DNA from: Stropharia rugosoannulata
Lineage: Eukaryota; Basidiomycota; Agaricomycetes; Agaricales; Strophariaceae
Direction of reading: 5' to 3'
Assembly: GCA_028532985.1 (NCBI GenBank)
Contig: JANCIK010000011.1
Location: 992,001-1,056,000 of the forward strand
DNA length: 64,000 bases
Positions 42,871 through 64,000 of the stretch are shown in pieces (positions within the stretch are counted from its first letter, which is position 1; the number at the start of each line of letters is the position of its first letter). The notes under the pieces were generated by a model. The model had not been told where the DNA came from. It did not search any database and worked only from the letters and a program-made list of their open reading frames with translations. Made by a program: the position numbers and the translations under genes.

Positions 42871-42932
42871 GGTGAATGAGAGTTATAGAAAGGGAATAGG
42901 ACGAACGTTATTGCTTATATGAGAGACGCGCA

Positions 42933-42940
42933 TATTTATA
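42933..42940 (-). promoter_or_regulatory. TATA-like box of the FSP1-like gene at the repeat border
   Basis: Read on the minus strand this is TATAAATA, about 63 bases before the start codon at 42870. The surrounding 40 bases resemble the junction between repeat units (53232-53275), where the TATA-like core is altered. Confidence 0.5.
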
Positions 42941-42998
42941 TGGCCAAGGCGACATCTGGCCAACATTGAGGTTAAATTAAGTTTGGCACTCCTCGCGT

Positions 42999-43267
42999 AG
43001 ATCGCGCTCGCAGCTGACAAATTCAGGTGCAAATTCTGCGGGAAACGTTTCGATGCAGCAATGACTCAGCACTTCTATGACATTCGTTTCCTTCTGCGGA
43101 AGGACTTTGGCATTGAATCAACATTGAATGTAACGTGTTCTGACAAGTCTTCATGTACTCTATCTCCTCGAGGCGTGTCGACATTCCTACGTTTACCATT
43201 ACTAAGTCTTTCTGTATTTTTAGTTTTTACAAAGCCAACCCTTCGTAAATGGCAAGTATTGGACTAA
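42999..43267 (+). other. open fragment with a Cys-x2-Cys zinc-finger-like start
   Basis: An open stretch without its own ATG at the left end. It begins KFRCKFCGKRFDAAMTQHF: two Cys spaced as in a C2H2 finger and one His at the expected distance, but no second His follows. It could be a gene remnant at the start of each unit. Same frame at 53314-53582 and 63647-63915. No function assigned. Confidence 0.3.
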
Positions 43268-43895
43268 TAACACTTGAAGTAATGCTTCCAGACAAATGTG
43301 TCCGCCGTAACTATTCAGTAGCTCGTAAGCGAAGATGTTGACTCTTCTCAGTGGGTCGCCTCTAAGACTCAGACTGGTGCTACATGTCAGTTTGGCGTAC
43401 AAGTTATTACAAACTAGTTCAATCAAAGCCACCCGTAAGAATAAGTTCGCACAGATCTTCCAACCAGTTATACTCCGTAAAATATTAACGTAGTAGATCT
43501 CAAGTAGTTGATCATGTAACCAGTAAAGCCTTGAGCTTGACCTCCCCAAACCTTCCTCTGAAAATTAGTGATTTATTACCCTATCGGTATTGTTACTCAG
43601 CGTATACTATTATCCACTAGACTCGCGACCATACCCTATGCGTACAAAGGAGATGCCGAGTGGCATCACTGAGTTTCAAATCGGCTGCAACCTTGGTAAC
43701 TATTGGTTCATTCCGATTATTGCTTTCCCATATCCTACTACTAATTTTCGGACTTGTATAACGAGTTTGCTGTCTATGTAGTGCCGTCGGAGTTGTTATT
43801 TTGAGCGTCCGCAAGCCAATATTTTCAACTTCTCACGCAACTCTTGCATTCTTTCGAAAACATCCGCTCTTCAATCAGTGCAACTAACAGCAGGA

Positions 43896-44802
43896 ATGGA
43901 TCCACCAACAACAGCTAGTGACGTTTTCGACACTAGTACGGACACCTGCAATCAACGAGGTCAACGATACACCCCAAATATCCCAGCAGAGATTTGGATT
44001 ACCATCATCCAAGAGGCGATATGCTTCCCTCGACACATTCTTTATCCTGATATGCTAGGATTAACAGTAGGGCTACCTTCCTCGATTATTCTAAGAGACC
44101 AACGTCAATCAGTGAAAAAATCTATGGTATGTACATCAATCTTTTGCCCGGTGCCTGGCGCTCAAGAATATGTAGGCAACAAGGAGCCATCTCTGCAGAG
44201 TAAACAAGTCGTGGCATATCTGGACAGCGCCTTTTCTTTATGAGTACATTATTCTTGAAAAGAATATGCAACCATCTACTGCTCTGGAACTGATGGCACG
44301 AGCGCGGGCCTCTCTGGCGTCCTGTGCGTCACCTCCAGCACTTGGCTCAGCAACGCAGCGGTTGGATGTCAACACATATATATCCAAAGACATGGACCAT
44401 GATAAATTTTTTAACGACCTTGCTGATTTGCTATCTCACCTAACCAGCCTTCGGGTCCTGACTTTTTCTCTTAGCAAGACGTTTCGTGAAAACCCAAGGC
44501 TACCTGCAGTTGTTGTTGAATCACTCAAGTGTCACAAGTCGCTCAAAGTGTTGCACTGGTACACGTACCCCTACTTTCCAATAGTGGATGTGCCCCAGTT
44601 CTTAACAGACTACTCCAGCCTCGAATCCATAAACACGTTCACAGCGCTACCTTCAGACTCTCAGGTAATAGATGGAAGTCTTGATTCACTAAAAGTGATT
44701 CATGTGCATGAAAGAGGCTTTGGAGATAGGATACAAGCGACACAGCCTCGGGTATGGAACAGATGCTACACTACTCGGCTGTCATTGCTTGGCATCATCT
44801 AA
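43896..44802 (+). CDS. F-box domain protein (repeat copy 1)
   Basis: Exons 43896-44126 and 44176-44802 with a 49-nt intron; 285 residues. The F-box begins in exon 1 (NIPAEIWITIIQEAICFPR) and is completed across the intron by LCRVNKSWHIWTAPFLYEYI, the pattern of basidiomycete F-box proteins (start P-E-I-W, later V-x-K-S-W then P-x-L-Y-E). A leucine-rich part follows (LSHLTSLRVLTFSL, SLKVLHW, SSLESI, LDSLKVIHV). Such proteins recruit targets to SCF ubiquitin ligases through SKP1. Start: first ATG in frame. The family is usually longer, so further exons may lie after 44750, where a GTATGG could be a donor. The gene is near the left end of the unit and is disrupted in copy 2. Confidence 0.75.
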
Positions 44803-45128
44803 CCCGTGTATGGCAAGAAAACTGCCAAAAAAGGGTTAGATCGTTGAAAATCACTCAAGTTTTACACTCTTTCCTGCTGCGTACCGACAGCACTTCTCCC
44901 CGCCCGAAGGCCAGGTATTTGTGTGAAAAAGAACGGAAGCACGTACCTCCTGTTTGAGCATGGATACCGAGAACGGCTAACTGGGGCTGTAGGACGGCTG
45001 ACTTCGGGAACCACAGTACGTGCTCTGGCAGGTGCCACTTCTTGTGTTGACGTGCGTGCAGTGCTGTGGTCTGCGTCAGTTCAGAAGCATGCATACACTG
45101 TGAATGTTACTCACAAGTGCTATGGCTC

Positions 45129-45248
45129 ATGAAGACAAGGGGGTGCAGGTCGTAGTCCTGGCATGATACAGGTAAGTGTCAAGTCTCATAACCATGATTC
45201 ATGAAGACAAGGGGGTGCGAGTCGTAGTGCTGGCATGACACAAGTAAG
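45129..45248 (+). repeat. short direct repeat of about 48 bp, two copies
   Basis: ATGAAGACAAGGGGGTGC followed by a conserved GTCGTAGT.CTGGCATGA.AC segment occurs at 45129-45178 and again at 45201-45248. Both end in AGGTAAG or AAGTAAG. Present also in copy 2 at 55457-55576. Confidence 0.8.
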
Positions 45249-45539
45249 AATCAGGTCAGAGTTCCCGCTCAACTAACAAGATTCAGACTCAGTCCTCTGC
45301 GGGACCCACGCTCAAAAATCACACCATTCTCGTAGCGCGGATATTACATATATTTCACATTCTGTCTACGGAGAATGAATGGTGTTTGTTGTTTTACTAA
45401 AATATACTATGAATGAAATAGAAGGTGGATACGCATGAGTTTGGGCACGGCAAGTCATTTACAGGGCATCCATACATCAAATTTGGTTGACAGTACATCA
45501 TACACACTTGTACAACATATGGGATGGATAGTGACGTGG

Positions 45540-47280
45540 CTTGAAACTCACCTGCGTCGTCGCTACTATCTTTGCACGTTACTTCACCCTCCCTAGACCT
45601 CGAACCCTGGCCATTGCAAATGGTCTCGACTGTCTCTGAAACACGCAGCTGGGAGGCATTTGCGGGAAGGCAATATGTCGTTTTGGGGTGAGGAATTGCT
45701 GTGAACCACTACGAGAGAGAAATACCGCGGACACGAGGGAAAAATGGTGGGCTACGTGACTTGCTGTGAAAGACTAGACTAGAGAGAGAAATGCTGTGGG
45801 CATGGGGGAGAAAAAGGTGGGTTACATTTATGCCTGTGTCTGAGCACAGAAAGCTATTTGCGGGTCGTACATACATTCAATTTGGTCGAGAGAGTCCGTA
45901 CAGTATAAGGAAGAGGGTAAGCAAGAAGACAGCAGGTGTGCAACTCACCCGCGTCATCACAGGTCCACCAACAAAACCTTTACTGTTTCAGCTTGCGCTG
46001 TGCTCGCTGCAGGCGTTGACATTAACTGATGGGCGTCACAAATCGTCTTGAATGTTGTAGTTTCTCTCCTGAAGCGCGCGCGGCGGGGATGGGTTTGCGG
46101 GAAGGTGATATGTCGTTTCGGGACACGGGGGTTAATTACACCACTGTTTCATGCGCCCATTCGGGCTGTACATAGTGTAAGTAAGAAAAAATGAGATGAG
46201 CAGTTGTTATGTACGCACCTGTGATATTGAGGCGCACTAGCGCTGCTGTTTCCTCACAAAACTGTCTCTTGCGGGTATTGTAAACTGTACGACGCTCCAT
46301 AGCTCGTATCTCTATGTTGTGCTGCTGGAGAGTGTTCTCCGGACACTGATAAACTGTGTTGGGCAGGCTGGGCGGACTATACACATTGTAAGTAGAAACG
46401 AGAAGGCAGCAGTAATGCGCACACCTGTAGCGCTGCTCCTCCTTCGCAAACTTGGCTTATATTTATTGAGCAATTATGCCGCTCGCCGCGGGTGCATTCG
46501 TCTTGGGAGGCTGTTTTTGGGGCGTCGATATATAGTGTTTGGACTTGAACATTGTCCCAGGAGCGCGTTTCTACCGAAATGAAAGTGGATAAGTACAGTA
46601 ACTAATAGAAATTGGATGTGTGGCTTACATGGGTCGCTGCAGCGCTGGCACGCTGCTAAACGGATTCGTCCTGGGAAGGGCGTTTGCGGGGCGTCGATAC
46701 ATAGCGTCGGGACCTGGGCACGTTGCACGTTTCAGGTCTAGAGCGAAGGCTGTAAGCAGAAATGGTGTATAGAGCTGTTACAATATACCTGGGTTATCAC
46801 AGCGCTAGCACGGTGCTCCTCGCATAATTGAAGTCCTTTAACAACGGCAGCCCCTTCCTCTCTCCAAAAAACGCTCACTCGCCACAGGGCCCCGTCTTCC
46901 TAATGCTTCGACATTGACATACATCTTGAAACGTGTCAGGAAAACCGTGTGCCAACGCATTAGGGACTGCACATCGTTTCTGGGGCGAATATGACTACAG
47001 AGGAATGGTATTAAGCAAATAATACATAGAACATGTACACTTATAGCTTGCCTAGGTCCTAGCGAAGACACAGCTCGCCGTGAAGGTCCTCCGTTTGCAA
47101 GGGTCGCGCTCGCTGCAGGGCATAAGCCCTTGAAGCCAGGTGCCTGTTTATACGTCTTGCACATTGTTCCAGGTGTAGATATTTCAATTAGCCGCTGAAC
47201 AGTGTCTTCGGGTGTCGAAAAACTGTGATTTCATGCAGTGTGTCATCCAAGAGCGTGCGTGCGTCCAAGGGCAGGTGTCC
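45540..47280 (-). other. array of exon-plus-intron-like modules, minus strand (copy 1)
   Basis: On the minus strand at least five blocks of about 120-210 bases are each closed by a donor-like GTRNGY and followed by a 40-60 base AT-rich spacer ending in YAG or YRG. Block ends lie near 46795, 46628, 46425, 46220 and 45950. Blocks share internal motifs: CGACGCCCC with CCAAGACGA or CCCAGGACGA in two, and block ends such as GGAGCAGCGCTACAG and GAACAGCAGCGCTAG. Translations of neighbouring blocks are similar in places (TLYIDAPKTASQDE and TLCIDAPQTPFPG), but frames are not conserved throughout. It looks like a tandemly amplified exon, now decayed or fast-evolving. Copy 2 of the unit has the same array at 55868-57610. 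No family recognised. Confidence 0.4.
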
Positions 47281-47663
47281 ACGGCTGAGACAGCACATGA
47301 GTTAGTAACATAGTATTCAGCAGAATATACACGACGTACCGGGTCTTTATACAATCCAGTCAACATCTGGATGGCGTGAGGTGGCAACGGCAAGAGGCAA
47401 GAGTTGCATCGGCTAGTACGTAAAATGTTAGCACCGGCATACTCCCTCACTCCGCTGCACAGGAACGCGACCGCGCGCCGCACCTCCGGGATGCTGGACT
47501 GCTGGACTATTCCCCCATCCCATGGGTATCGATTAATACATATATGATCCCCTTTTGGGAAACGTCGGGGTTGTGCAAGGTCAAGACGAGACACTGATCG
47601 GACGGAATATGCCTCCCAAGAGTGTGCGTCTTGTATCTTTGCACCACAGCCGCTCCCCTGCCA

Positions 47664-47681
47664 GTCATTTAATTAAATGAC
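47664..47681. repeat. perfect 18-bp AT-rich palindrome
   Basis: GTCATTTAATTAAATGAC reads the same on both strands. It lies between the minus-strand module array and AT-rich unit DNA; repeated in copy 2 at 57993-58010. Role unknown. Confidence 0.7.
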
Positions 47682-48359
47682 CCACAGTATACAAGGAACA
47701 TGCATACTCTATACTGGTGATGAAATCCATAAACTGAATCTCATGTAACGCTCACACTACTGAGATGTGCATTGGGCGTCATATATGCCACGGTATACAC
47801 CCTCCCGGGCCATATGTGCAGTTACACATATTCGAGACCATTTAATAATCTCAGACTGTACTAATGTATCCTATATACCGTGCGGAGTCTACCAGATATT
47901 GTGTGAATTACAAAATCTCTGCAGTGCTCGTTAGTTTTGCATACGCCTGCATCGACTACCGAGGGTCAAGAACATTATGAAATCCATTGCTGAGAACCAT
48001 ACAAAATGTGTTAATCATTCTTCATCTGCAATTTGTACATCATTATGTAGACTAGGTATCACTCTGAAATGAGTGTAATAGGACGGTGAAATGGCAGGCA
48101 CTAGTACTCACATTGTTGAAACACGGCGTATCAAAGCTACGTTCCCTCGACGTACAAATCTGCCCAAATCGGCGATTAATTTACTCTAGAACCGTTCTAA
48201 ATGTATTATGTAAGATGTCCGTATAGCCGCCAAGCCTTGCTAATAGCTAGCGTCAGCGGTCTCTAAAGTGTTGGAAGAAGTACAGGAAGAGTACAGGGTT
48301 TCTACATACATTCCACTTCAATTCTAAGACGTGTACGGTAAATATGACATACTATCATT
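47682..48359. other. AT-rich spacer inside the repeat unit
   Basis: No open frame or motif that I can support; the same holds for 58011-58690 in copy 2. Confidence 0.5.
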
Positions 48360-48720
48360 GAGTATATATGTCATAGATGTCATATGAGCGCGTGAACTTG
48401 TGCGCATGCGTGCGGTACTTGCGCTGCTGTCTTGATGGACTTTGTGGCACGGTTTTCAGTGGTTCTCGAGGTACAATAAGTTCGTTTCATGCAGTTTAAA
48501 GACATATATATAATCTGTATACCAATTACAATATGTCAGGTACATATTTTGATGATAATTCAAGCTCAAAGCTTCTCTGAATTGCCAGTAACGCTCATAC
48601 CACGACACCCTCCTTAACACATTCTGGCATGACTTTACACAAAAGGGCTTGATTTCTCGGCTCCCAAATACGCTGGATCAGGGTCCTATTGAGCTATATT
48701 TGGTGTGGGAGTTGCACTAG
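48360..48720 (-). pseudogene. degenerate relative of the following F-box-like frame
   Basis: Similar in order and wording to 48850-49180: GCGTGCGGTACTTGCGC against GCGTGCGGCTCTTGCGC, GATGGACTTTGTGGCAC against GATGCACTTTGCGGTAC, and CACAAAAGGGCTTGATTTCT against CACAAAAGGGCCCCACTTTT. No usable frame remains. It is an older tandem copy within the unit. Confidence 0.5.
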
Positions 48721-48832
48721 GAGCAGGAGCTAGCAGTAGCCATGGTATATAGAAGATGTGTGCGGAATGCACAGGGAGCCGTGCAGTGCGATTTGCACGA
48801 TTTACGCAATTATACGGAATTATTGACCTCTT

Positions 48833-49195
48833 TTATGTTGTATCACGACTATACATGTTGGGATAAGTGAGAACGCTCCAGTGCGTTTGCGTGCGGCTCT
48901 TGCGCCAGTTCTCGAGTCGTTTGATGCACTTTGCGGTACAGCATGCAGCACATCGCCTCGCATATTTCACCGTTATTTCCTTAATTATACCACACTTCCC
49001 GTATACTAGATAAGCCCATTGTACTTGTGTATAATCTGCAACACGCGCAATTGTCAGGAAGCCGTCGCGCATTGGACACGGTATCCATCCCCACCTGTTC
49101 CTCCACTTCGCGTTCTCGTGTAATCTTGCACAAAAGGGCCCCACTTTTCGGCAATCTAATCCGGCTAATATGCTAATGATATCATGTGCTGGCAT
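48833..49195 (-). CDS. F-box-like/zinc-ribbon protein fragment (copy 1)
   Basis: An open frame of 120 codons. The layout matches the middle of a common basidiomycete F-box type: a short N-terminal helix after the F-box, a W-R-x-R stretch (KWRNRWGWIPCP), QVQWAYLVYGKCG in place of the usual QYA-L-x-F-G-x-C, and a Cys-rich ending YARRCAACCTAKCIKRLE. The family's first Cys pair is incomplete here. No upstream F-box exon was found. In copy 2 an extra A (near 59463) breaks this frame, giving two overlapping pieces (59163-59402 and 59311-59526). Function not assigned beyond the likeness. Confidence 0.45.
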   Translation of the reverse strand: MPAHDIISILAGLDCRKVGPFCARLHENAKWRNRWGWIPCPMRDGFLTIARVADYTQVQWAYLVYGKCGIIKEITVKYARRCAACCTAKCIKRLENWRKSRTQTHWSVLTYPNMYSRDTT

Positions 49196-52019
49196 GTCGC
49201 AGAGCTTCGCGACCGAGCAACTAGCTCTAGATTCGAAGATACGCGCAAGCAGACGCAGGGCGGGTTATCTATCCTGCGCGCTATAGCACTGTAAGTCATT
49301 TATATATTTATTAACAAACTCATAGTAATAATGTTGGTCAGATGGTCACTGTTGGCAGGTATGAAAGATCGGACATATGTATCTCGGACTCGGATAACAA
49401 GAGTGCGTGCGCACCCTGCCCGCATCCCCGTTCCGAATGTTCTGTGCAATACTTCAGACTTTACGGACTTTTTCCGTGTAGCACTACCGCCGCTGACCAT
49501 TACGTACCGGCTACCAGTCAGATGCCCACTAGTCCAACTGTTGTCAGTTAGTTTCGGGCATACGAAGAGTGCAATGAATATACGCCCTCGGTCCAGGCAT
49601 GTATGCTGAAACCGCACACGCACGTACATTCCTACTCAATTACTAGGAATATCTCAATGAAGTGACCCTTTGTAGACTGAGAATTTGTTATGCAGCATCT
49701 ATGAGATGTGCTGCATACTGGACTTGTACAATATAGCTGACAACGCTGTTGCTAAACCAGAAAACGTGCTTGGGGAATATTATGGATTATTACAGGCATA
49801 GACACTCAGTAAAGTAGTCACACAGCAGACTGCGCAGAACTACAGTGCTGGTGATGAATACAATGATTTATTCATAGAATCCGATCTGAAATCGACGCGC
49901 AGAGGAGGAGGGACCATGGAGCCGGCTCTCGCTTAGTTGGACACATTACGCCCAGGACCCTGCACTCACACTTTTGGTCCGCTCCTTCATCATAGCTCTA
50001 TTTGGTACGTATCCGTATGTACACCTGCTCTACAAAATGTATATAAGCCGGTTAGCTAACTTGACCATTCTTCAGTTCCCTCCTCTCCTCTCTCTTCTCA
50101 GCTTCTCTTTGCCTCCCGCCTCTAGACGGCGTTCTCGCACTGGCTGAGATCTGTCCTGCACTGGCACGCTGCGGCTGGCAGCGACAAGCTCAGTGAGTAC
50201 GGACATATCTCAGTGCAACTGCGTGATGCTGATGTGTTACCTAGAGCATGACAACGGTTCGTGATGACCACGAGCCAACACCACGCTGGGCCTCAAAGAC
50301 GGACATGTCAGCCAGCGGACACGTCAGAATCTGACCTACCTGGAACGTATCGCGGGTTCGCAGCACGCGCCATCACTATGTCGATTCGTGTTCCAAGCAC
50401 CCGGCCGTTTGTTACGAGGTGAGTACAGTGCGACTTATTGAACCGGACTGTCCTGACCGAACCAGTGCAATTGGGTTGTTTTCGAAGGTACGCAGGTAGG
50501 GCGCCAGGCGCTGCAGTGAGCGTACGCAACTTGCCAGCGCGTCAAGGGCGGATCGGACATGCTTCACGCAGGACAGTGAGACGAAAGTAAGTGGTCCGTA
50601 TCAATATATACAACTGAACTGACTTGCCCTTCTTGCAGAACTGTTTTATTACCTTGCTAGGACATGCGGACGAGGCCAAGAACCCAAACAAACCGCGCCA
50701 CGTCGTTTGCAGTACACGATGCATCGCGCAGCAGAGGATCTGGCACGACTAGCAGGCCATACGGCGATCGCGTGCCAGTCAGAACTGAACATTCCGCTGT
50801 TGTTGGAAGCGTACGCGAGCCAAGTCATGCACAGGGCGAATGGCCTTGCCCACTGAGACGCCTAGAACATCTGCTGTGAGTCGAGCTTCAATGATGTTTA
50901 AATTGTGAGCACTTACATACCTCTTTTATGCAGCCTCTCGTTGTCGTGCATGGCAAATGCTGCAACACGAGCGCTATGATGCTGGGTATCCACCCAGGGC
51001 CCATTAGCACGCTGGGTATGCGAGGCGCACGTCCAGGAGCATGCGCAAGCTAACTTATGACCTCTCGGTCATGGAAGGGCAGTGGCAAAGTTCACTGTAA
51101 GTCGTACTTACTCCATTTCTGCCCTTAATTGACATTGAAGGCCGCTGCAGCGCGAGCACATGCTGATGTCGATGTGCTGGTAAGTAAGTCCTGTATATAA
51201 TCCGTATCTGTAGCTAACATACCTTTGACATAGCCCATTCATTGCGCTGCATGGCGGTAGTAAGAACTTACCTATTGAATAGGCTCTCGTTGGTGTATGT
51301 CTCTGCCGTGACATGCGCCGTGCACAATGGTGCATTGAACTCACTATGGAACAGTCCCGCTGCATGCACAGAGCAATTTCGCGTCTGCCCGAACACTGCA
51401 GCAGTGGCGGGATTCTTCTCGCGGATACTATGCCCTGTGAGTGATAACAGCGCGCGTTATAAACAGTAAACCTTACGTCCATAATCCCAGAAGACGCCGC
51501 AATCACGTTCCTGCGTGAGAGGAACACGACGTTTTCGACGCAGCATGACGGCAGACGAATGGGATACAGCAAATTGCTGTCCAGTGTACGCCGCCTGCGA
51601 GCTCGATGACAACGACATGCATCGCTCTGCCCGCCTCTGCGAAAGCCAAGGGTAAGTAAAATCTTATTATCATGTACATTGTATACTCTATCTAACATAC
51701 CTTGCTACTCTAGCATGGGGCGGAGCAGACAGCGGTGGTTGCGAGTTCCGAGTGTGCGGATGTGGGTCATGCAGTAAGTACCCAGGGCACTGTGTTACAC
51801 GGTGAGCAAGAAAAACACCTCGCCTTGGTGCTCCACGCCCGTGCCGTGCATGGTCCGCGCGATTGATGGTGCGTATAGAACCTTCTCTGAATCAAGTTCC
51901 TGAGTGACAGGAGCATGACATTGTCGAGAAGGTTGCTGCAGCATGTGTCTATCGCTCATCTGGCAGACAGATGGATAGGGCGCGGGGCATGCGCGCTGTC
52001 CTGTATCGCAGCATGCAAA

Positions 52020-52340
52020 GACCGGCACCTTGAGGTTCGGGCTGCATTGGTAGTGGCGCGCTGATTGCGAGTGCGGACTGCACAAAGGTGGGTTGCGCAG
52101 GCATGAGCGCCGCCTTACTCTGGGCACGCTCAACACTGCGCCAGGAAATACCCGCTCCTCGTTTGCGCGTCGCCTGTTCCGTGAGCAGTGGTGGCGCAGG
52201 ATTGATGGCGCGCGCGGAACGCGCTAAGCACGGTGGTTCTTGTGCGCGGCTACTGTCTGTGATCACGGGTAAGCACAAGTAACAGGCCGCGCTAACCTGC
52301 GCTCGTCCAGTGAGCTTCGGCTGCGCAGGATCAATGCCAT
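52020..52340 (+). repeat. internal 0.35-kb duplication, first arm (copy 1)
   Basis: Starts GACCGGCACCTTGAGGTTCG and ends GGATCAATGCCAT; repeated with about 10-15 percent differences at 52375-52701. In copy 2 at 62351-62671. Confidence 0.85.
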
Positions 52341-52374
52341 CCTTATGGTAGCAGACGAACTGGCCGACTGCGAA

Positions 52375-52701
52375 GACTGGCACCTTGAGGTTTCGGCTGC
52401 ATTGGCATTGGCGGCGCAGCGCGCTGATTGCAAGTCCAACTGCGCAAAGGTGGGTCACGCAGGCATGACTGCCGCCAAGTTACTCTGGGTACATTCAACA
52501 CTGTGCAAGAGAATACCCGCTCCTGCTTGCGCCCCGCCTGTTTCGTGGTGGCGCGCAATCGATAGCGCGCGGAACAACGCGCTAAACACGGCGGTTCTTG
52601 TGCGCGGCTGTTCTCCGTGATCACGGGTAAGCACAAGCGTACAGGCTGCGCCGCGACGTGCGCACGTCTAGTGAGCTTCGGCTACGCGGGATTAATGCCA
52701 T
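52375..52701 (+). repeat. internal 0.35-kb duplication, second arm (copy 1)
   Basis: Starts GACTGGCACCTTGAGGTTTC and ends GGATTAATGCCAT. Both arms contain GTGATCACGGGTAAGCACAAG. In copy 2 at 62706-63035. Confidence 0.85.
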
Positions 52702-52860
52702 GCGCATTGGCCTTGAGTCGTCTGTCCCCTGCGCCGCGCACGCCGTACTTGCCCGTGCAAACGGTTCTGTAGAATTACATGTACTTGTTAATGCAGATCA
52801 TAATGCGACGTACCCTGAATTACCGTCCTTGAGGTGGACCGGCGTGTGAGCGCGGGTCGC

Positions 52861-53231
52861 GGAAACACTTCCGCAACGGAGGCGTCGCGCGGGCAGCGGA
52901 ACTCACGGGACAGATTCGCGTGCACCGTACCCGCCTCGCGACGGTTCGGTCTTGCTGCGGACGTGACATTTGTCTGAATCCTTGCGGCGCTGCGACGCGC
53001 AACGGCATCAGATGGGCAGGAGCGGCGGCGGCGCTGTGTGAGGCCAAGAAAGGGACGACGGGACACGGCGCGTGGGACGGTGTCAAGTGAGGGGATGGGA
53101 TACGAGGGGAAGACCTCGGGAGAGGCAACAGGCGGCGTGTGCGGGAGGCGATGGGAGGCATGCACGAGATGTGCGGGAGGGGCAAAGAGACTCGAGGCAA
53201 CAGACGTGCAGAGTGGAGAGCAGGCAGTGCC
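52861..53231. other. GC-rich end of the repeat unit, C/T-rich on the minus strand
   Basis: Promoter-like composition reading leftward: long pyrimidine tracts on the minus strand followed at 53232-53275 by a segment resembling the FSP1-like promoter. Long open frames here (52788-53270 minus) are not supported by any pattern. Confidence 0.4.
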
Positions 53232-54223
53232 TATATGAGAGAGGTGTGTGTTTATGCGGCCAGTCGACATCTGGCCAACATTGAGGTTAAATTAAATCTG
53301 GCACTCCTCGCGTAGATCGCGCTCGCAGCTGACAAATTCAGGTGCAAATTCTGCGGGAAACGTTTCGATGCAGCAATGACTCAGCACTTCTATGACATTC
53401 GTTTCCTTCTGCGGAAGGACTTTGGCATTGAATCAACATTGAATGTAACGTGTTCTGACAAGTCTTCATGTACTCTATCTCCTCGAGGCGTGTCGACATT
53501 CCTACGTTTACCATTACTAAGTCTTTCTGTATTTTTAGTTTTTACAAAGCCAACCCTTCGTAAATGGCAAGTATTGGACTAATAACACTTGAAGTAATGC
53601 TTCCAGACAAATGTGTCCGCCGTAACTATTCAGTAGCTCGTAAGCGAAGATGTTGACTCTTCTCAGTGGGTCGCCTCTAAGACTCAGACTGGTGCTACAT
53701 GTCAGTTTGGCGTACAAGTTATTACAAACTAGTTCAATCAAAGCCACCCGTAAGAATAAGTTAGCACAGATCTTCCAACCAGTTATACTCCGTAAAATAT
53801 TAACGTAGTAGATCTCAAGTAGTTGATCATGTAACCAGTAAAGCCTTGAGCTTGACCTCTCCAAACCTTCCTCTTAAAATTAGTGATTTATTACCCTATC
53901 GGTATTGTTACTCAGCGTATATTATCCACTAGACTCGCGACCATACCCTATGCGGTTTGCTAGTCATGCGTACAAAGGAGATGCCGAGTGGCATCACTGA
54001 GTTTCAAATCGGCTGCAACCTTGGTAACTATTGGTTCATTCCGATTATTGCTTTCCCATATCCTACTACTAATTTTCGGACTTGTATAACGAGTTTGCTG
54101 TCTATTTAGTGCCGTCGGAGTTGTTATTTTGAGCGTCCGCAAGCCAATATTTTCAACTTCTCACGCAACTCTTGCATTCTTTCGAAAACATCCGCTCTTC
54201 AATCAGTGCAACTAACAGCAGGA

Positions 54224-55129
54224 ATGGATCCACCAACAACAGCTAGTGACGTTTTCGACACTAGTACGGACACCTGCAATCAACCAGGTCAACGATACAC
54301 CCCAAATATCCCAGCAGAGATTTGGATTATCATCATCCAAGAGGCGATATGCTTCCCTCGACACATTCTTTATCCTGATATGCTAGGATTAACAGTAGGG
54401 CTACCTTCCTCGATTATTCTAAGAGACCAACGTCAATCAGTGAAAAAATCTATGGTATGTACATCAATCTTTTGCCCGGTGCCTGGCGCTCAAGAATATG
54501 TAGGCAACAAGGAGCCATCTCTGCAGAGTAAACAAGTCGTGGCATATCTGGACAGCGCCTTTTCTTTATGAGTACATTATTCTTGAAAAGAATATGCAAC
54601 CATCTACTGCTCTGGAACTGATGGCACGAGCGCGGGCCTCTCTGGCGTCCTGTGCGTCACCTCCAGCACTTGGCTCAGCAACGCAGCGGTTGGATGTCAA
54701 CACATATATATCCAAAGACATGGACCATGATAAATTTTTTAACGACCTTGCTGATTTGCTATCTCACCTAACCAGCCTTCGGGTCCTGACTTTTTCTCTT
54801 AGCAAGACGTTTCGTGAAAACCAAGGCTACCTGCAGTTGTTGTTGAATCACTCAAGTGTCACAAGTCGCTCAAAGTGTTGCACTGGTACACGTACCCCTA
54901 CTTTCCAATAGTGGATGTGCCCCAGTTCTTAACAGACTACTCCAGCCTCGAATCCATAAACACGTTCACAGCGCTACCTTCAGACTCTCAGGTAATAGAT
55001 GGAAGTCTTGATTCACTAAAAGTGATTCATGTGCATGAAAGAGGCTTTGGAGATAGGATACAAGCGACACAGCCTCGGGTATGGAACAGATGCTACACTA
55101 CTCGGCTGTCATTGCTTGGCATCATCTAA
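54224..55129 (+). pseudogene. F-box gene (repeat copy 2), frameshifted
   Basis: Same gene as 43896-44802 with the intron at 54455-54503. One C is missing in the run near 54821 (ACCAAGG where copy 1 has ACCCAAGG), which shifts the frame in the leucine-rich part. Two amino-acid changes lie in exon 1 (Arg to Pro before the F-box, Thr to Ile in it). A homopolymer sequencing error could explain the frameshift. Confidence 0.72.
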
Positions 55130-58100
55130 CCCGTGTATGGCAAGAAAACTGCCAAAAAAGGGTTAGATCGTTGAAAATCACTCAAGTTTTACACTCTTTC
55201 CTGCTGCGTACCGACAGCACTTCTCCCCGCCCGAAGGCCAGGTATTTGTGTGAAAAAGAACGGAAGCACGTACCTCCTGTTTGAGCATGGATACCGAGAA
55301 CGGCTAACTGGGGCTGTAGGACGGCTGACTTCGGGAACCACAGTACGTGCTCTGGCAGGTGCCACTTCTTGTGTTGACGTGCGTGCAGTGCTGTGGTCTG
55401 CGTCAGTTCAGAAGCATGCATACACTGTGAATGTTACTCACAAGTGCTATGGCTCATGAAGACAAGGGGGTGCAGGTCGTAGTCCTGGCATGATACAGGT
55501 AAGTGTCAAGTCTCATAACCATGATTCATGAAGACAAGGGGGTGCGAGTCGTAGTGCTGGCATGACACAAGTAAGAATCAGGTCAGAGTTCCCGCTCAAC
55601 TAACAAGATTCAGACTCAGTCCTCTGCGGGACCCACGCTCAAAAATCACACCATTCTCGTAGCGCGGATATTACATATATTTCACATTCTGTCTACGGAG
55701 AATGAATGGTGTTTGTTGTTTTACTAAAATATACTATGAATGAAATAGAAGGTGGATACGCATGAGTTTGGGCACGGCAAGTCATTTACAGGGCATCCAT
55801 ACATCAAATTTGGTTGACAGTACATCATACACACTTGTACAACATATGGGATGGATAGTGACGTGGCTTGAAACTCACCTGCGTCGTCGCTACTATCTTT
55901 GCACGTTACTTCACCCTCCCTAGACCTCGAACCCTGGCCATTGCAAATGGTCTCGACTGTCTCTGAAACACGCAGCTGGGAGGCATTTGCGGGAAGGCAA
56001 TATGTCGTTTTGGGGTGAGGAATTGCTGTGAACCACTACGAGAGAGAAATACCGCGGACACGAGGGAAAAAATGGTGGGCTACGTGACTTGCTGTGAAAG
56101 ACTAGACTAGAGAGAGAAATGCTGTGGGCATGGGGGAGAAAAAGGTGGGTTACATTTATGCCTGTGTCTGAGCACAGAAAGCTATTTGCGGGTCGTACAT
56201 ACATTCAATTTGGTCGAGAGAGTCCGTACAGTATAAGGAAGAGGGTAAGCAAGAAGACAGCAGGTGTGCAACTCACCCGCGTCATCACAGGTCCACCAAC
56301 AAAACCTTTACTGTTTCAGCTTGCGCTGTGCTCGCTGCAGGCGTTGACATTAACTGATGGGCGTCACAAATCGTCTTGAATGTTGTAGTTTCTCTCCTGA
56401 AGCGCGCGCGGCGGGGATGGGTTTGCGGGAAGGTGATATGTCGTTTCGGGACACGGGGGTTAATTACACCACTGTTTCATGCGCCCATTCGGGCTGTACA
56501 TAGTGTAAGTAAGAAAAAATGAGATGAGCAGTTGTTATGTACGCACCTGTGATATTGAGGCGCACTAGCGCTGCTGTTTCCTCACAAAACTGTCTCTTGC
56601 GGGTATTGTAAACTGTACGACGCTCCATAGCTCGTATCTCTATGTTGTGCTGCTGGAGAGTGTTCTCCGGACACTGATAAACTGTGTTGGGCAGGCTGGG
56701 CGGACTATACACATTGTAAGTAGAAACGAGAAGGCAGCAGTAATGCGCACACCTGTAGCGCTGCTCCTCCTTCGCAAACTTGGCTTATATTTATTGAGCA
56801 ATTATGCCGCTCGCCGCGGGTGCATTCGTCTTGGGAGGCTGTTTTTGGGGCGTCGATATATAGTGTTTGGACTTGAACATTGTCCCAGGAGCGCGTTTCT
56901 ACCGAAATGAAAGTGGATAAGTACAGTAACTAATAGAAATTGGATGTGTGGCTTACATGGGTCGCTGCAGCGCTGGCACGCTGCTAAACGGATTCGTCCT
57001 GGGAAGGGCGTTTGCGGGGCGTCGATACATAGCGTCGGGACCTGGGCACGTTGCACGTTTCAGGTCTAGAGCGAAGGCTGTAAGCAGAAATGGTGTATAG
57101 AGCTGTTACAATATACCTGGGTTATCACAGCGCTAGCACGGTGCTCCTCGCATAATTGAAGTCCTTTAACAACGGCAGCCCCTTCCTCTCTCCAAAAAAC
57201 GCTCACTCGCCACAGGGCCCCGTCTTCCTAATGCTTCGACATTGACATACATCTTGAAACGTGTCAGGAAAACCGTGTGCCAACGCATTAGGGACTGCAC
57301 ATCGTTTCTGGGGCGAATATGACTACAGAGGAATGGTATTAAGCAAATAATACATAGAACATGTACACTTATAGCTTGCCTAGGTCCTAGCGAAGACACA
57401 GCTCGCCGTGAAGGTCCTCCGTTTGCAAGGGGTCGCGCTCGCTGCAGGGCATAAGCCCTTGAAGCCAGGTGCCTGTTTATACGTCTTGCACATTGTTCCA
57501 GGTGTAGATATTTCAATTAGCCGCTGAACAGTGTCTTCGGGTGTCGAAAAACTGTGATTTCATGCAGTGTGTCATCCAAGAGCGTGCGTGCGTCCAAGGG
57601 CAGGTGTCCACGGCTGAGACAGCACATGAGTTAGTAACATAGTATTCAGCAGAATATACACGACGTACCGGGTCTTTATACAATCCAGTCAACATCTGGA
57701 TGGCGTGAGGTGGCAACGGCAAGAGGCAAGAGTTGCATCGGCTAGTACGTAAAATGTTAGCACCGGCATACTCCCTCACTCCGCTGCACAGGAACGCGAC
57801 CGCGCGCCGCACCTCCGGGATGCTGGACTGCTGGACTATTCCCCCATCCCATGGGTATCGATTAATACATATATGATCCCCTTTTGGGAAACGTCGGGGT
57901 TGTGCAAGGTCAAGACGAGACACTGATCGGACGGAATATGCCTCCCAAGAGTGTGCGTCTTGTATCTTTGCACCACAGCCGCTCCCCTGCCAGTCATTTA
58001 ATTAAATGACCCACAGTATACAAGGAACATGCATACTCTATACTGGTGATGAAATCCATAAACTGAATCTCATGTAACGCTCACACTACTGAGATGTGCA

Positions 58101-59162
58101 TTGGGCGTCATATATGCCACGGTATACACCCTCCCGGGCCATATGTGCAGTTACACATATTCGAGACCATTTAATAATCTCAGACTGTACTAATGTATCC
58201 TATATACCGTGCGGAGTCTACCAGATATTGTGTGAATTACAAAATCTCTGCAGTGCTCGTTAGTTTTGCATACGCCTGCATCGACTACCGAGGGTCAAGA
58301 ACATTATGAAATCCATTGCTGAGAACCATACAAAATGTGTTAATCATTCTTCATCTGCAATTTGTACATCATTATGTAGACTAGGTATCACTCTGAAATG
58401 AGTGTAATAGGACGGTGAAATGGCAGGCACTAGTACTCACATTGTTGAAACACGGCGTATCAAAGCTACGTTCCCCTCGACGTACAAATCTGCCCAAATC
58501 GGCGATTAATTTACTCTAGAACCGTTCTAAATGTATTATGTAAGATGTCCGTATAGCCGCCAAGCCTTGCTAATAGCTAGCGTCAGCGGTCTCTAAAGTG
58601 TTGGAAGAAGTACAGGAAGAGTACAGGGTTTCTACATACATTCCACTTCAATTCTAAGACGTGTACGGTAAATATGACATACTATCATTGAGTATATATG
58701 TCATAGATGTCATATGAGCGCGTGAACTTGTGCGCATGCGTGCGGTACTTGCGCTGCTGTCTTGATGGACTTTGTGGCACGGTTTTCAGTGGTTCTCGAG
58801 GTACAATAAGTTCGTTTCATGCAGTTTAAAGACATATATATAATCTGTATACCAATTACAATATGTCAGGTACATATTTTGATGATAATTCAAGCTCAAA
58901 GCTTCTCTGAATTGCCAGTAACGCTCATACCACGACACCCTCCTTAACACATTCTGGCATGACTTTACACAAAAGGGCTTGATTTCTCGGCTCCCAAATA
59001 CGCTGGATCAGGGTCCTATTGAGCTATATTTGGTGTGGGAGTTGCACTAGGAGCAGGAGCTAGCAGTAGCCATGGTATATAGAAGATGTGTGCGGAATGC
59101 ACAGGGAGCCGTGCAGTGCGATTTGCACGATTTACGCAATTATACGGAATTATTGACCTCTT

Positions 59163-59526
59163 TTATGTTGTATCACGACTATACATGTTGGGATAAGTGA
59201 GAACGCTCCAGTGCGTTTGCGTGCGGCTCTTGCGCCAGTTCTCGAGTCGTTTGATGCACTTTGCGGTACAGCATGCAGCACATCGCCTCGCATATTTCAC
59301 CGTTATTTCCTTAATTATACCACACTTCCCGTATACTAGATAAGCCCATTGTACTTGTGTATAATCTGCAACACGCGCAATTGTCAGGAAGCCGTCGCGC
59401 ATTGGACACGGTATCCATCCCCACCTGTTCCTCCACTTCGCGTTCTCGTGTAATCTTGCACAAAAAGGGCCCCACTTTTCGGCAATCTAATCCGGCTAAT
59501 ATGCTAATGATATCATGTGCTGGCAT
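59163..59526 (-). pseudogene. F-box-like fragment (copy 2), frameshifted
   Basis: Same sequence as 48833-49195 except for five instead of four A at 59462-59466, which shifts the frame after GPF near the N-terminus. Possibly a homopolymer error. Confidence 0.45.
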
Positions 59527-62500
59527 GTCGCAGAGCTTCGCGACCGAGCAACTAGCTCTAGATTCGAAGATACGCGCAAGCAGACGCAGGGCGGGTTATC
59601 TATCCTGCGCGCTATAGCACTGTAAGTCATTTATATATTTATTAACAAACTCATAGTAATAATGTTGGTCAGATGGTCACTGTTGGCAGGTATGAAAGAT
59701 CGGACATATGTATCTCGGACTCGGATAACAAGAGTGCGTGCGCACCCTGCCCGCATCCCCGTTCCGAATGTTCTGTGCAATACTTCAGACTTTACGGACT
59801 TTTTCCGTGTAGCACTACCGCCGCTGACCATTACGTACCGGCTACCAGTCAGATGCCCACTAGTCCAACTGTTGTCAGTTAGTTTCGGGCATACGAAGAG
59901 TGCAATGAATATACGCCCTCGGTCCAGGCATGTATGCTGAAACCGCACACGCACGTACATTCCTACTCAATTACTAGGAATATCTCAATGAAGTGACCCT
60001 TTGTAGACTGAGAATTTGTTATGCAGCATCTATGAGATGTGCTGCATACTGGACTTGTACAATATAGCTGACAACGCTGTTGCTAAACCAGAAAACGTGC
60101 TTGGGGAATATTATGGATTATTACAGGCATAGACACTCAGTAAAGTAGTCACACAGCAGACTGCGCAGAACTACAGTGCTGGTGATGAATACAATGATTT
60201 ATTCATAGAATCCGATCTGAAATCGACGCGCAGAGGAGGAGGGACCATGGAGCCGGCTCTCGCTTAGTTGGACACATTACGCCCAGGACCCTGCACTCAC
60301 ACTTTTGGTCCGCTCCTTCATCATAGCTCTATTTGGTACGTATCCGTATGTACACCTGCTCTACAAAATGTATATAAGCCGGTTAGCTAACTTGACCATT
60401 CTTCAGTTCCCTCCTCTCCTCTCTCTTCTCAGCTTCTCTTTGCCTCCCGCCTCTAGACGGCGTTCTCGCACTGGCTGAGATCTGTCCTGCACTGGCACGC
60501 TGCGGCTGGCAGCGACAAGCTCAGTGAGTACGGACATATCTCAGTGCAACTGCGTGATGCTGATGTGTTACCTAGAGCATGACAACGGTTCGTGATGACC
60601 ACGAGCCAACACCACGCTGGGCCTCAAAGACGGACATGTCAGCCAGCGGACACGTCAGAATCTGACCTACCTGGAACGTATCGCGGGTTCGCAGCACGCG
60701 CCATCACTATGTCGATTCGTGTTCCAAGCACCCGGCCGTTTGTTACGAGGTGAGTACAGTGCGACTTATTGAACCGGACTGTCCTGACCGAACCAGTGCA
60801 ATTGGGTTGTTTTCGAAGGTACGCAGGTAGGGCGCCAGGCGCTGCAGTGAGCGTACGCAACTTGCCAGCGCGTCAAGGGCGGATCGGACATGCTTCACGC
60901 AGGACAGTGAGACGAAAGTAAGTGGTCCGTATCAATATATACAACTGAACTGACTTGCCCTTCTTGCAGAACTGTTTTATTACCTTGCTAGGACATGCGG
61001 ACGAGGCCAAGAACCCAAACAAACCGCGCCACGTCGTTTGCAGTACACGATGCATCGCGCAGCAGAGGATCTGGCACGACTAGCAGGCCATACGGCGATC
61101 GCGTGCCAGTCAGAACTGAACATTCCGCTGTTGTTGGAAGCGTACGCGAGCCAAGTCATGCACAGGGCGAATGGCCTTGCCCACTGAGACGCCTAGAACA
61201 TCTGCTGTGAGTCGAGCTTCAATGATGTTTAAATTGTGAGCACTTACATACCTCTTTTATGCAGCCTCTCGTTGTCGTGCATGGCAAATGCTGCAACACG
61301 AGCGCTATGATGCTGGGTATCCACCCAGGGCCCATTAGCACGCTGGGTATGCGAGGCGCACGTCCAGGAGCATGCGCAAGCTAACTTATGACCTCTCGGT
61401 CATGGAAGGGCAGTGGCAAAGTTCACTGTAAGTCGTACTTACTCCATTTCTGCCCTTAATTGACATTGAAGGCCGCTGCAGCGCGAGCACATGCTGATGT
61501 CGATGTGCTGGTAAGTAAGTCCTGTATATAATCCGTATCTGTAGCTAACATACCTTTGACATAGCCCATTCATTGCGCTGCATGGCGGTAGTAAGAACTT
61601 ACCTATTGAATAGGCTCTCGTTGGTGTATGTCTCTGCCGTGACATGCGCCGTGCACAATGGTGCATTGAACTCACTATGGAACAGTCCCGCTGCATGCAC
61701 AGAGCAATTTCGCGTCTGCCCGAACACTGCAGCAGTGGCGGGATTCTTCTCGCGGATACTATGCCCTGTGAGTGATAACAGCGCGCGTTATAAACAGTAA
61801 ACCTTACGTCCATAATCCCAGAAGACGCCGCAATCACGTTCCTGCGTGAGAGGAACACGACGTTTTCGACGCAGCATGACGGCAGACGAATGGGATACAG
61901 CAAATTGCTGTCCAGTGTACGCCGCCTGCGAGCTCGATGACAACGACATGCATCGCTCTGCCCGCCTCTGCGAAAGCCAAGGGTAAGTAAAATCTTATTA
62001 TCATGTACATTGTATACTCTATCTAACATACCTTGCTACTCTAGCATGGGGCGGAGCAGACAGCGGTGGTTGCGAGTTCCGAGTGTGCGGATGTGGGTCA
62101 TGCAGTAAGTACCCAGGGCACTGTGTTACACGGTGAGCAAGAAAAACACCTCGCCTTGGTGCTCCACGCCCGTGCCGTGCATGGTCCGCGCGATTGATGG
62201 TGCGTATAGAACCTTCTCTGAATCAAGTTCCTGAGTGACAGGAGCATGACATTGTCGAGAAGGTTGCTGCAGCATGTGTCTATCGCTCATCTGGCAGACA
62301 GATGGATAGGGCGCGGGGCATGCGCGCTGTCCTGTATCGCAGCATGCAAAGACCGGCACCTTGAGGTTCGGGCTGCATTGGTAGTGGCGCGCTGATTGCG
62401 AGTGCGGACTGCACAAAGGTGGGTTGCGCAGGCATGAGCGCCGCCTTACTCTGGGCACGCTCAACACTGCGCCAGGAAATACCCGCTCCTCGTTTGCGCG

Positions 62501-63599
62501 TCGCCTGTTCCGTGAGCAGTGGTGGCGCAGGATTGATGGCGCGCGCGGAACGCGCTAAGCACGGTGGTTCTTGTGCGCGGCTACTGTCTGTGATCACGGG
62601 TAAGCACAAGTAACAGGCCGCGCTAACCTGCGCTCGTCCAGTGAGCTTCGGCTGCGCAGGATCAATGCCATCCTTATGGTAGCAGACGAACTGGCCGACT
62701 GCGAAGACTGGCACCTTGAGGTTTCGGCTGCATTGGCATTGGCGGCGCAGCGCGCTGATTGCAAGTCCAACTGCGCAAAGGTGGGTCACGCAGGCATGAC
62801 TGCCGCCAAGTTACTCTGGGTACATTCAACACTGTGCAAGAGAATACCCGCTCCCTGCTTGCGCCCCGCCTGTTTCGTGGTGGCGCGCAATCGATAGCGC
62901 GCGCGGAACAACGCGCTAAACACGGCGGTTCTTGTGCGCGGCTGTTCTCCGTGATCACGGGTAAGCACAAGCGTACAGGCTGCGCCGCGACGTGCGCACG
63001 TCTAGTGAGCTTCGGCTACGCGGGATTAATGCCATGCGCATTGGCCTTGAGTCGTCTGTCCCCTGCGCCGCGCACGCCGTACTTGCCCGTGCAAACGGTT
63101 CTGTAGAATTACATGTACTTGTTAATGCAGATCATAATGCGACGTACCCTGAATTACCGTCCTTGAGGTGGACCGGCGTGTGAGCGCGGGTCGCGGAAAC
63201 ACTTCCGCAACGGAGGCGTCGCGCGGGCAGCGGAACTCACGGGACAGATTCGCGTGCACCGTACCCGCCTCGCGACGGTTCGGTCTTGCTGCGGACGTGA
63301 CATTTGTCTGAATCCTTGCGGCGCTGCGACGCGCAACGGCATCAGATGGGCAGGAGCGGCGGCGGCGCTGTGTGAGGCCAAGAAAGGGACGACGGGACAC
63401 GGCGCGTGGGACGGTGTCAAGTGAGGGATGGGATACGAGGGGAAGACCTCGGGAGAGGCAACAGGCGGCGTGTGCGGGAGGCGATGGGAGGCATGCACGA
63501 GATGTGCGGGAGGGGCAAAGAGACTCGAGGCAACAGACGTGCAGAGTGGAGAGCAGGCAGTGCCTATATGAGAGAGGTGTGTGTTTATGCGGCCAGTCG

Positions 63600-64000
63600 A
63601 CATCTGGCCAACATTGAGGTTAAATTAAATCTGGCACTCCTCGCGTAGATCGCGCTCGCAGCTGACAAATTCAGGTGCAAATTCTGCGGGAAACGTTTCG
63701 ATGCAGCAATGACTCAGCACTTCTATGACATTCGTTTCCTTCTGCGGAAGGACTTTGGCATTGAATCAACATTGAATGTAACGTGTTCTGACAAGTCTTC
63801 ATGTACTCTATCTCCTCGAGGCGTGTCGACATTCCTACGTTTACCATTACTAAGTCTTTCTGTATTTTTAGTTTTTACAAAGCCAACCCTTCGTAAATGG
63901 CAAGTATTGGACTAATAACACTTGAAGTAATGCTTCCAGACAAATGTGTCCGCCGTAACTATTCAGTAGCTCGTAAGCGAAGATGTTGACTCTTCTCAGT
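63600..64000. repeat. 10.3-kb tandem repeat, start of copy 3
   Basis: The first 401 bp of a third unit, identical in what I compared to copy 2, including two bases where copies 2 and 3 differ from copy 1 (TTAAATCTGG against TTAAGTTTGG). The unit continues beyond the window. Confidence 0.95.

What the first reader, a model, noticed from the sequence alone, without database searches (positions are those of the whole stretch)
42952..64000. A 10.3-kb head-to-tail tandem repeat of non-rDNA sequence
Two full units and the start of a third share nearly every base. The unit is the size of an rDNA repeat but contains no rRNA. It carries F-box genes and unfamiliar spliced-looking module arrays on both strands. 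Large tandem arrays of a genic unit like this are uncommon in fungal genomes outside rDNA; the array may be much longer than the window. It could be a recent segmental amplification, a subtelomeric element, or an undescribed large repeat family.
Basis: seen in the sequence. Interest (0 to 1): 0.9.

Follow-up and report, generated by a model that had tools for sequence, protein, structure and literature searches.

The report
Genome-wide family of noncoding tandem arrays
The 10.3-kb repeat is real and is one member of an apparently undescribed family of long noncoding DNA elements that sits at many places in this fungal genome, often as small tandem arrays in which each element alternates with a duplicated piece of the neighbouring host gene.

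Summary
The tandem repeat is real: 99.57% identity over 10,779 columns. All 17 substitutions lie in the first R segment; the 8.47-kb body shows none. The array ends 11.75 kb past the window: 3 copies, not a long array.

It is not an isolated amplification. The unit is R + E. R (1.86 kb) is local host DNA with a truncated gene; E (8.47 kb) is an element. A 17-base E motif (at most 1 mismatch) occurs at 31 sites in 12 loci, reversed control 0; with weaker matches about 17 loci, at least 7 of them tandem. Between loci long stretches of E are 57-70% alike and R is unrelated. In 9 of 9 loci followed to both ends, R copies outnumber E copies by one. First-R differences crowd at the outer edge: a homologous-recombination footprint.

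E shows no consistent coding signal. It has a conserved ~2-kb core with a TATA motif, divergent spliced-looking exons with conserved splice sites, and a ~160-bp box predicted to fold, with covariation; no Rfam match. Best reading: a noncoding element family amplified through R recombination; how it reaches new loci and what the RNA does are unknown. The F-box call has no Pfam support.

The parts
42912..44757 (+). R1: first flanking direct repeat; local host DNA with the upstream side and 5' part of an F-box-like (by eye) gene, cut off by the element
43782..44802 (+). truncated host gene: two overlapping open frames (43782-44243 and 44176-44802, the second running a short way into E); the longer version (367-aa open frame) is formed by the last R plus the right flank outside the window (contig 1067170-1068270)
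   Evidence: no Pfam hit for two frames; one homologue at 45% identity, 99% coverage
44758..53227 (+). E1: the element, copy 1 (8470 bp)
44789..44949 (-). box: ~160-bp most conserved part of E; predicted hairpins on the minus strand with an invariant GCC-UUCG-GGC hairpin; a 5' splice-site-like sequence at its right edge (present in 7 of 9 aligned boxes, absent in the two C1b copies)
44894..44912 (+). 19-base motif TTCTCCCCGCCCGAAGGCC
   Evidence: 2 in window, 0 expected; family-wide
45064..47700 (-). left-hand spliced-looking exon modules of E1 (predicted introns e.g. 47339-47285, 46218-46166, 45114-45064)
   Evidence: coordinates converted by me
48041..50101 (.). core of E1: conserved noncoding blocks shared by six loci
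50040..50048 (+). TATATAAGC motif at the start of the right-hand exon region; TATATAA in 5 of 6 loci, ATATAA in the sixth
50193..52800 (+). right-hand spliced-looking exon modules of E1 (predicted introns e.g. 50193-50244, 50419-50465), with an internal 78% repeat 52014-52340 / 52369-52701
   Evidence: coordinates converted by me
53228..55084 (+). R2: internal flanking repeat with the truncated host gene
55085..63560 (+). E2: element copy 2 (8476 bp), 0 substitutions from E1
55116..55276 (-). box of E2
60371..60379 (+). TATATAAGC motif of E2
63561..64000 (+). R3, first 440 bp; the array continues beyond the window to contig 1067751 (R3-E3-R4)

Best explanation
The window holds one array of a dispersed family of long (7.4-10.5 kb at five measured loci; R copies 24 kb apart at a sixth, C3b), apparently noncoding elements, here called E. 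SHOWN: E occurs at many loci; each locus that could be followed has the form R-E-R or (R-E)n-R, where R is that locus's own host DNA (1.1-2.4 kb at five measured loci); internal units are nearly uniform while the outer edge of the first R, and in C11, C12 and C1 that of the last R, keep separate sequence. INFERRED: E once entered each locus together with a duplication of R, either as a circular E+R molecule joined by a single crossover in R or by break repair that copied R again; after that, crossovers between the flanking R copies add, remove and homogenise units, so the array is kept uniform while the outermost host sequence, including the longer version of the neighbouring gene at the C11 and C3a right ends, is preserved. 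INFERRED: E is transcribed both ways from the conserved core, giving long multi-exon spliced RNAs; the leftward RNA passes through the folded box and runs up to, or into, the host-gene piece. Such loci are most likely either selfish noncoding repeats that exploit recombination, or multi-copy genes for a structured noncoding RNA.
For: Dispersal: 31 sites of the 17-base motif at <=1 mismatch, 0 in the reversed control; further loci. R = E + 1 in 9 of 9 loci followed to both ends: C11 4/3, C12 6/5, C3a 4/3, C1 5/4, C13 2/1 (read directly); C7 5/4, C4 4/3, C1b 3/2, C3b 2/1 (only 135 bp of R compared, 100% identical) from the places of search matches. Recombination footprint: first R against an internal R, substitutions by tenths of R from the outer edge: C11 11,0,1,2,1,2,0,0,0,0; C12 4,5,7,0...; C1 11,15,5,8,2,0...; C13 11,0... 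(against its only other R); C3a 14,14,1,0,0,0,0,0,0,3. Last R differs only at the opposite edge in C11 (8), C12 (2 plus 17 gap columns) and C1 (5 substitutions; 2 gap columns elsewhere). Host gene crosses the right end: C11 367-aa open frame, C3a adenosine-kinase-like gene. Not coding by comparison: 16-31% of short indels are multiples of 3 and mismatches show no 3-base spacing in 4 alignments; 12 of the 25 E frames of 140 aa or more listed were scanned with Pfam and none reaches a curated cut-off. Splicing: strong predicted introns keep both splice sites in the aligned locus 19 of 39 times, weak ones 39 of 196, p = 3.8e-4. Box fold on nine boxes: 88% of cells paired, covariation score 0.179, 0 of 500 shuffles as high.
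Against: Transcription is not shown; no RNA data. How E reached new loci is not shown; no empty allele or circle was seen. In 6 of 12 strand tests the longest spliced open frame exceeded all 10 shuffles (C11-, C3a-, C1+, C1-, C3b+, C3b-; the last is gypsy-pol-like by eye, with a sub-cut-off Tf2-1-like SH3 hit, E 0.014), so an unrecognised protein cannot be excluded; one search covered mainly left and core parts, had no positive control, and 13 of the 25 frames were not scanned. C3a's last R differs along its whole length (66 substitutions), unlike the simple edge pattern, and its first R has 3 at the inner edge. The edge pattern fits both unequal crossover and circle integration. Two C1b boxes lack the splice-like site. 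In one search two of five measures (pairs with double change, further pair types) are unexceptional, the structure was drawn on one member, and the more diverged C4 and C7 boxes were left out of that alignment.
Confidence: 0.55

Rival explanations
1. Ordinary recent segmental tandem duplication of one locus, with no special element; uniformity is simply youth.
For: Zero substitutions among internal E copies at C11 and C12; units carry host gene pieces.
Against: The same E with the same order (box, left exons, core, right exons) is at many loci with unrelated R; R = E + 1 at 9 of 9 loci, whereas a simple tandem duplication of a single-copy segment gives equal numbers; first R differs from internal R by up to 41 substitutions at C1, crowded at the outer edge, so the R duplication looks older than the uniformity.
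Confidence: 0.1
2. False duplication by the assembler.
For: E copies at C11 and C12 have no substitution, and the indels printed for two C11 pairs and one C12 pair are homopolymer or short-repeat changes typical of noisy reads; reads were not available.
Against: One C3a E copy differs from the other two by 197 substitutions, C1b segments are 88-98% alike, C4 copies 97-98%, C7 segments 92-100%; first and last R differ from internal R in a locus-specific way. An artefact would not pick the same element at seven loci.
Confidence: 0.05
3. A tandemly expanded long-terminal-repeat retrotransposon or large retrotransposon derivative (LARD), with R as the LTR.
For: E flanked by kb-sized direct repeats; noncoding interior; unequal crossover between LTRs is known to make such arrays (recalled).
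Against: At six loci compared, no cross-locus match (E <= 1e-6) starts in R; R holds pieces of different host genes and runs unbroken into the host flank on both sides; R ends at five loci follow no common TG...CA rule; no pol domain above cut-off in the 12 E frames scanned.
Confidence: 0.07
4. A homing-type element: the R fragment is a homology arm, and E is copied into E-free alleles by recombination, as WHO elements do at the yeast FBA1 gene.
For: Gene fragments alternate with elements and a longer gene stands at one end; the first R (host-like outer part, array-like inner part) resembles the chimeric FBA1 described in PMC7282813 (one section read).
Against: No endonuclease domain found in the 12 of 25 E frames scanned, no homologue for one of them; no E-free allele available.
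Confidence: 0.15

Closest known systems
Macrosatellites such as human DXZ4 and D4Z4
   Same: Kilobase-sized tandem units; DXZ4 not obviously protein coding, D4Z4 transcribed in both directions (titles and abstract starts in a search listing; otherwise recalled)
   Different: Here one element family occupies many loci with 1-5 units each, alternating with locus-specific host-gene pieces; I know of no counterpart of the folded box
WHO elements at FBA1 in Torulaspora/Lachancea (PMC7282813; abstract, outline and one section read)
   Same: Tandem cluster of element plus fragment of the target gene, with one full gene at the end and chimeric gene copies
   Different: WHO elements encode an endonuclease; E has no recognised protein; each E locus has a different neighbouring gene
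Large retrotransposon derivatives (LARDs) and tandem LTR arrays (recalled)
   Same: Long noncoding interior between kb-sized direct repeats
   Different: The repeats are host DNA, different at each locus
Tandem RNA-gene arrays such as RNU2, 5S or spliced-leader RNA genes (recalled)
   Same: Small structured RNA candidate in a much longer, homogenised tandem unit
   Different: Box matches no Rfam family; arrays are small, many and diverged from each other; box looks intron-like

Membership tests
rDNA or other known RNA-gene array | contains a known structural RNA gene | tested here: not met
   Rfam gathering on the window 0 hits; E-value mode on one unit 0 hits; six other loci 1 hit, E 1.4, below gathering score; no tRNA at 42900-64000
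LTR retrotransposon / LARD | flanking direct repeats belong to the element and are shared between copies at different loci | tested here: not met
   six loci compared pairwise: no match starting in R; R holds different host genes
LTR retrotransposon / LARD | TG...CA ends and 4-6 bp target duplication | tested here: inconclusive
   junctions printed for 5 loci show no common ends; no formal target-duplication search was run
WHO homing element | encodes an intein-like zinc-finger endonuclease | tested here: not met
   12 of 25 E frames of 140 aa or more scanned with Pfam, none above cut-off; no homologue for one frame
WHO homing element | target-gene fragment beside each element and one full gene at the cluster end | tested here: met
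   C11 and C3a shown directly; C7 and C4 carry UBP-like and AMP-binding gene pieces in R, right flank not fetched
WHO homing element | element-driven gain in crosses | not testable with these tools
   needs living strains
Macrosatellite | kb-sized units in head-to-tail tandem, homogenised within the array | tested here: met
Macrosatellite | transcribed, usually in both directions | not testable with these tools
   no RNA data; splice-site conservation only
Helitron | Rep/helicase protein, TC...CTRR ends, 3' hairpin | not tested
   considered only; right end of E is variable between loci

The most novel reading that the evidence does not exclude
E is a protein-free homing or amplifying element: a noncoding DNA element whose working parts are a divergently transcribed, spliced and folded RNA plus a captured piece of the local host gene used as a homology arm, by which it enters and multiplies at many host genes while leaving a full copy of each gene at the array's end.
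Probability: 0.12. Interest if true: 0.95.

Novelty: categorically new. Interest (0 to 1): 0.78.

Why it matters
A large noncoding element family that alternates with duplicated host-gene pieces at many loci, with the same R = E + 1 rule, does not fit any standard transposon class that I could test. If it moves, it would show how a long element without an evident protein can enter and amplify at unrelated genes; if it is a host RNA-gene family, it adds a structured spliced RNA with no Rfam relative, carried in many homogenised arrays. It also matters for genome annotation: at C11 and C3a it makes several truncated copies of one host gene that look like a gene family. The predictions are simple to test with long reads, RNA sequencing and strain comparison.

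Tried and rejected
rRNA, tRNA and Rfam RNAs: none; one glutamine-II riboswitch hit in L023 at E 1.4, below its gathering score, taken as chance. Viral origin: the 19-base motif has 0 exact matches in IMG/VR contigs; that collection is not suited to fungi and the scan proves little. Coding capacity: longest spliced frames against shuffles (mixed result, told under evidence against), one E frame against 5.8 billion proteins (59 candidates, none at E <= 10), 12 of 25 long E frames against Pfam (none above cut-off; sub-cut-off hits TSLP 0.04 and polysaccharide lyase 0.061 in a C3a frame, SH3_Tf2-1 0.014 in a C3b frame), mismatch periodicity (none). A first, stricter intron scan found 3-8 introns per strand against 0.9-1.6 in shuffles and was not used further. 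Telomerase-RNA template idea (recalled): CUAACCC on the box minus strand is intact in only 5 of 9 rows; dropped. Shared right end of E: only C12/C3a and a weak C11/C12 match. Organism naming: the F-box-like protein has one homologue at 45% with no name; a white-rot basidiomycete is my inference from a class II peroxidase-like gene, not established. Papers: of 8 searches, six looked for such arrays (listings only) and two for known comparisons; none listed such arrays in fungi. Only open-licence papers are held, so absence in print is not shown. Repeat libraries (Dfam, Repbase) and other fungal genomes could not be searched.
Full report
OBSERVATION. Window 42912-53667 repeats at 53228-64000 with 99.573% identity over 10,779 columns. 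In the terms used here the window holds R1 (42912-44757), E1 (44758-53227), R2 (53228-55084), E2 (55085-63560) and the start of R3. All 17 substitutions fall in R1 against R2; E1 and E2 differ by none. The remaining differences are homopolymer or short-repeat length changes, as expected from noisy reads. A genome search places the window on contig 11 at 992001-1056000 of a 47.97-Mb assembly in 20 contigs; one more E and one more R follow, and the array ends at 1067751.

A FAMILY, NOT A LOCUS. Eight kb of the unit used as a query found the other units and diverged relatives on five other contigs, several of them in tandem. A 24-base invariant string of E has 25 places at up to 3 mismatches and none for the reversed control; its first 17 bases have 31 places at up to 1 mismatch, reversed control none. 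These 31 fall in 12 loci: C1 at 0.51 Mb, here C1b (2); C1 at 4.46-4.51 Mb, C1c (2); C1 at 4.67-4.71 Mb (4); C3 at 0.26 Mb, C3a (3); C3 at 4.10 Mb, C3b (1); C4 at 3.69-3.71 Mb (3); C5 at 0.22 Mb (1); C6 at 3.59-3.61 Mb (2); C7 at 1.31-1.34 Mb (4); C11 (3); C12 at 0.80-0.84 Mb (5); C13 at 0.19 Mb (1). Further, weaker loci: C6 3.05 Mb, C10 3.08 Mb, C12 1.27 Mb, C10 0.18 Mb and C15 0.13 Mb (box, core). That makes about 17. Fragments similar to the C3b core or to parts of the C1b unit are also scattered on C7 between 2.13 and 2.63 Mb. The search tool says its counts are lower bounds. Tandem copies are shown at seven loci (C11, C12, C3a, C1 4.67, C1b, C4, C7); at C1c and C6 3.59 the two sites are 51 and 21 kb apart and their arrangement was not resolved.

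THE R-E-R RULE. In the nine loci that could be followed to both ends, copies of R exceed copies of E by one. Five were read directly: C11 4/3, C12 6/5, C3a 4/3, C1 5/4, C13 2/1. Four rest on the places of search matches: C7 5/4, C4 4/3, C1b 3/2, C3b 2/1 with 135 bp of R compared. In the five read loci R runs on into the left flank in the first copy and into the right flank in the last copy; faint extra similarity of the left flank to the unit exists at C12 (502 columns, 95%) and C1 (350 columns, 76%), so R once reached further left there. Cross-locus similarity lies in E; R is not shared among the six loci compared. R carries a piece of a different host gene at each locus: adenosine-kinase-like (PfkB, E 4e-37), perilipin-like (3.2e-5, below its cut-off), class II peroxidase (6.2e-12 and 2e-14), ubiquitin hydrolase (4.3e-5, just under its cut-off), AMP-binding enzyme (4.8e-25). 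At C11 the gene is F-box-like by eye only, without Pfam support. At C11 and C3a a longer version of the gene is formed by the last R together with the right flank; the right flanks of C7 and C4 were not fetched.

RECOMBINATION FOOTPRINT. Comparing the first R with an internal R, substitutions crowd at the outer edge: C11 11 of 17, C12 16 of 16, C3a 28 of 32, C1 39 of 41 and C13 11 of 11 lie in the outer 10, 30, 20, 40 and 10% (for C13 the only other R was used). The last R differs from internal R only at the opposite edge in C11 (8), C12 (2 and 17 gap columns) and C1 (5 substitutions; 2 gap columns elsewhere); C3a's last R differs along its whole length (66). E copies: 0 substitutions in all 3 pairs at C11 and all 10 at C12, 0-3 in 6 pairs at C1, 1 between two C3a copies but 197 between each of these and the third. 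So units are homogenised by crossover or conversion, or were amplified recently, and the outermost sequence escapes. The same picture would follow from single-crossover integration of a circle carrying E and R. I cannot tell these apart.

WHAT E IS. Across six loci E has a fixed order: box, left exon region, core, right exon region. The box of six loci has 86% mean column identity. Its left end is nearly fixed, 27-75 bases before the string TTGGCAT at the five loci with a read R junction; the right end is not conserved apart from C12/C3a and a weak C11/C12 match. The core (window 48041-50101) holds many short conserved blocks and, at its right edge, TATATAA in 5 of 6 loci and ATATAA in the sixth. 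Predicted introns are short with good donor, branch and acceptor sites on the left (minus) and right (plus) sides. Strong predictions keep both splice sites in the aligned relative 19 of 39 times, weak ones 39 of 196 (p = 3.8e-4; thresholds were mine, sites are not independent, and three locus pairs were used). A hairpin-like exon end, GGAGGAGCAGCG...CAG before GTACGT-like donors, recurs at C11, C12, C3a, C1 and C13, not at C3b.

THE BOX AS RNA. On the minus strand of nine boxes from eight loci a four-helix fold has 88.0% of 225 cells paired (shuffles 84.0), 12 cells with double changes (shuffles 5.4) and covariation 0.179 (shuffles 0.110), with 0 of 500 shuffles as high on these three; on two other measures, pairs with double change (95 of 500) and further pair types (193 of 500), it is not exceptional. 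Slid versions score lower. The fold was drawn on one member. Helix 1, capped by UUCG, hardly varies and so neither supports nor opposes pairing. The C4 and C7 boxes were left out of this alignment; there the same motif sits in a longer stem by eye. A 5' splice-like GGT[AG][ACG]GT stands at the box edge in 7 of 9 rows, absent in the two C1b rows. Rfam has nothing like it.

CODING OR NOT. Four alignments of E between loci show no 3-base rhythm and 16-31% of short indels in multiples of three (no positive control, right-hand region mostly not covered). One E frame found no protein relative; 12 of the 25 frames of 140 aa or more were scanned with Pfam and none reached a cut-off. Against this, the longest spliced frame beat all ten shuffles in 6 of 12 strand tests, one of them gypsy-pol-like; I saw no correspondence of these frames between loci but did not align them systematically. 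I read E as noncoding, at about 85%.

MECHANISM AND STANDING. Shown: dispersal, R-E-R, near-uniform internal units, conserved noncoding parts. Inferred: crossovers between R copies expand and contract arrays; E entered each locus with duplication of R; the core drives divergent spliced RNAs. Unknown: what carries E to new loci and whether the RNA is used by the host. The nearest relatives in kind are macrosatellites, and WHO homing clusters, which also alternate element and gene fragment; membership in WHO fails because no endonuclease was found in what was scanned, and membership among LTR elements fails because R is not the element's own. I rate the kind as new because no class that I tested joins all its features, while granting that an undescribed non-autonomous mobile element is a real possibility and that repeat libraries could not be consulted.

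Noticed in passing
G000 contig C7, about 2.126-2.630 Mb: About a dozen scattered places similar to the C3b core or to parts of the C1b unit, on both strands, not in close tandem; may be a repeat-rich or recombination-poor region.
   Followed up: no
L030 (contig C3 4100001-4110000): The C3b element has a gypsy-pol-like frame (by eye; sub-cut-off Pfam hit) beside it, and a second copy of 135 bp of its R lies 24 kb away at 100% identity, so it is probably an element enlarged by later insertion.
   Followed up: partly
window 2899-2969 and 3601-3671: A 71-bp inverted repeat with 98.6% identity and a gap of about 630 bp, unrelated to the array.
   Followed up: no
L012-L016 (contig C12 0.80-0.84 Mb) and flanks: A tubulin frame (Pfam E 2.4e-14) lies within 0.8 kb of the start of the C12 array, and part of R resembles sequence on both flanks at 55-65%, perhaps a local family of small genes.
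   Followed up: partly
L028-L029 (contig C13 178255-192561): A class II peroxidase gene end is part of the R repeat of the single-unit C13 locus; the E there is 10.5 kb, with an extra segment of about 2.4 kb within the core compared with C11.
   Followed up: no
C11, C12 and C1 arrays: In the four copy pairs printed the differences are homopolymer or short-repeat lengths, plus one two-base substitution at C1, suggesting residual long-read errors in the assembly.
   Followed up: partly
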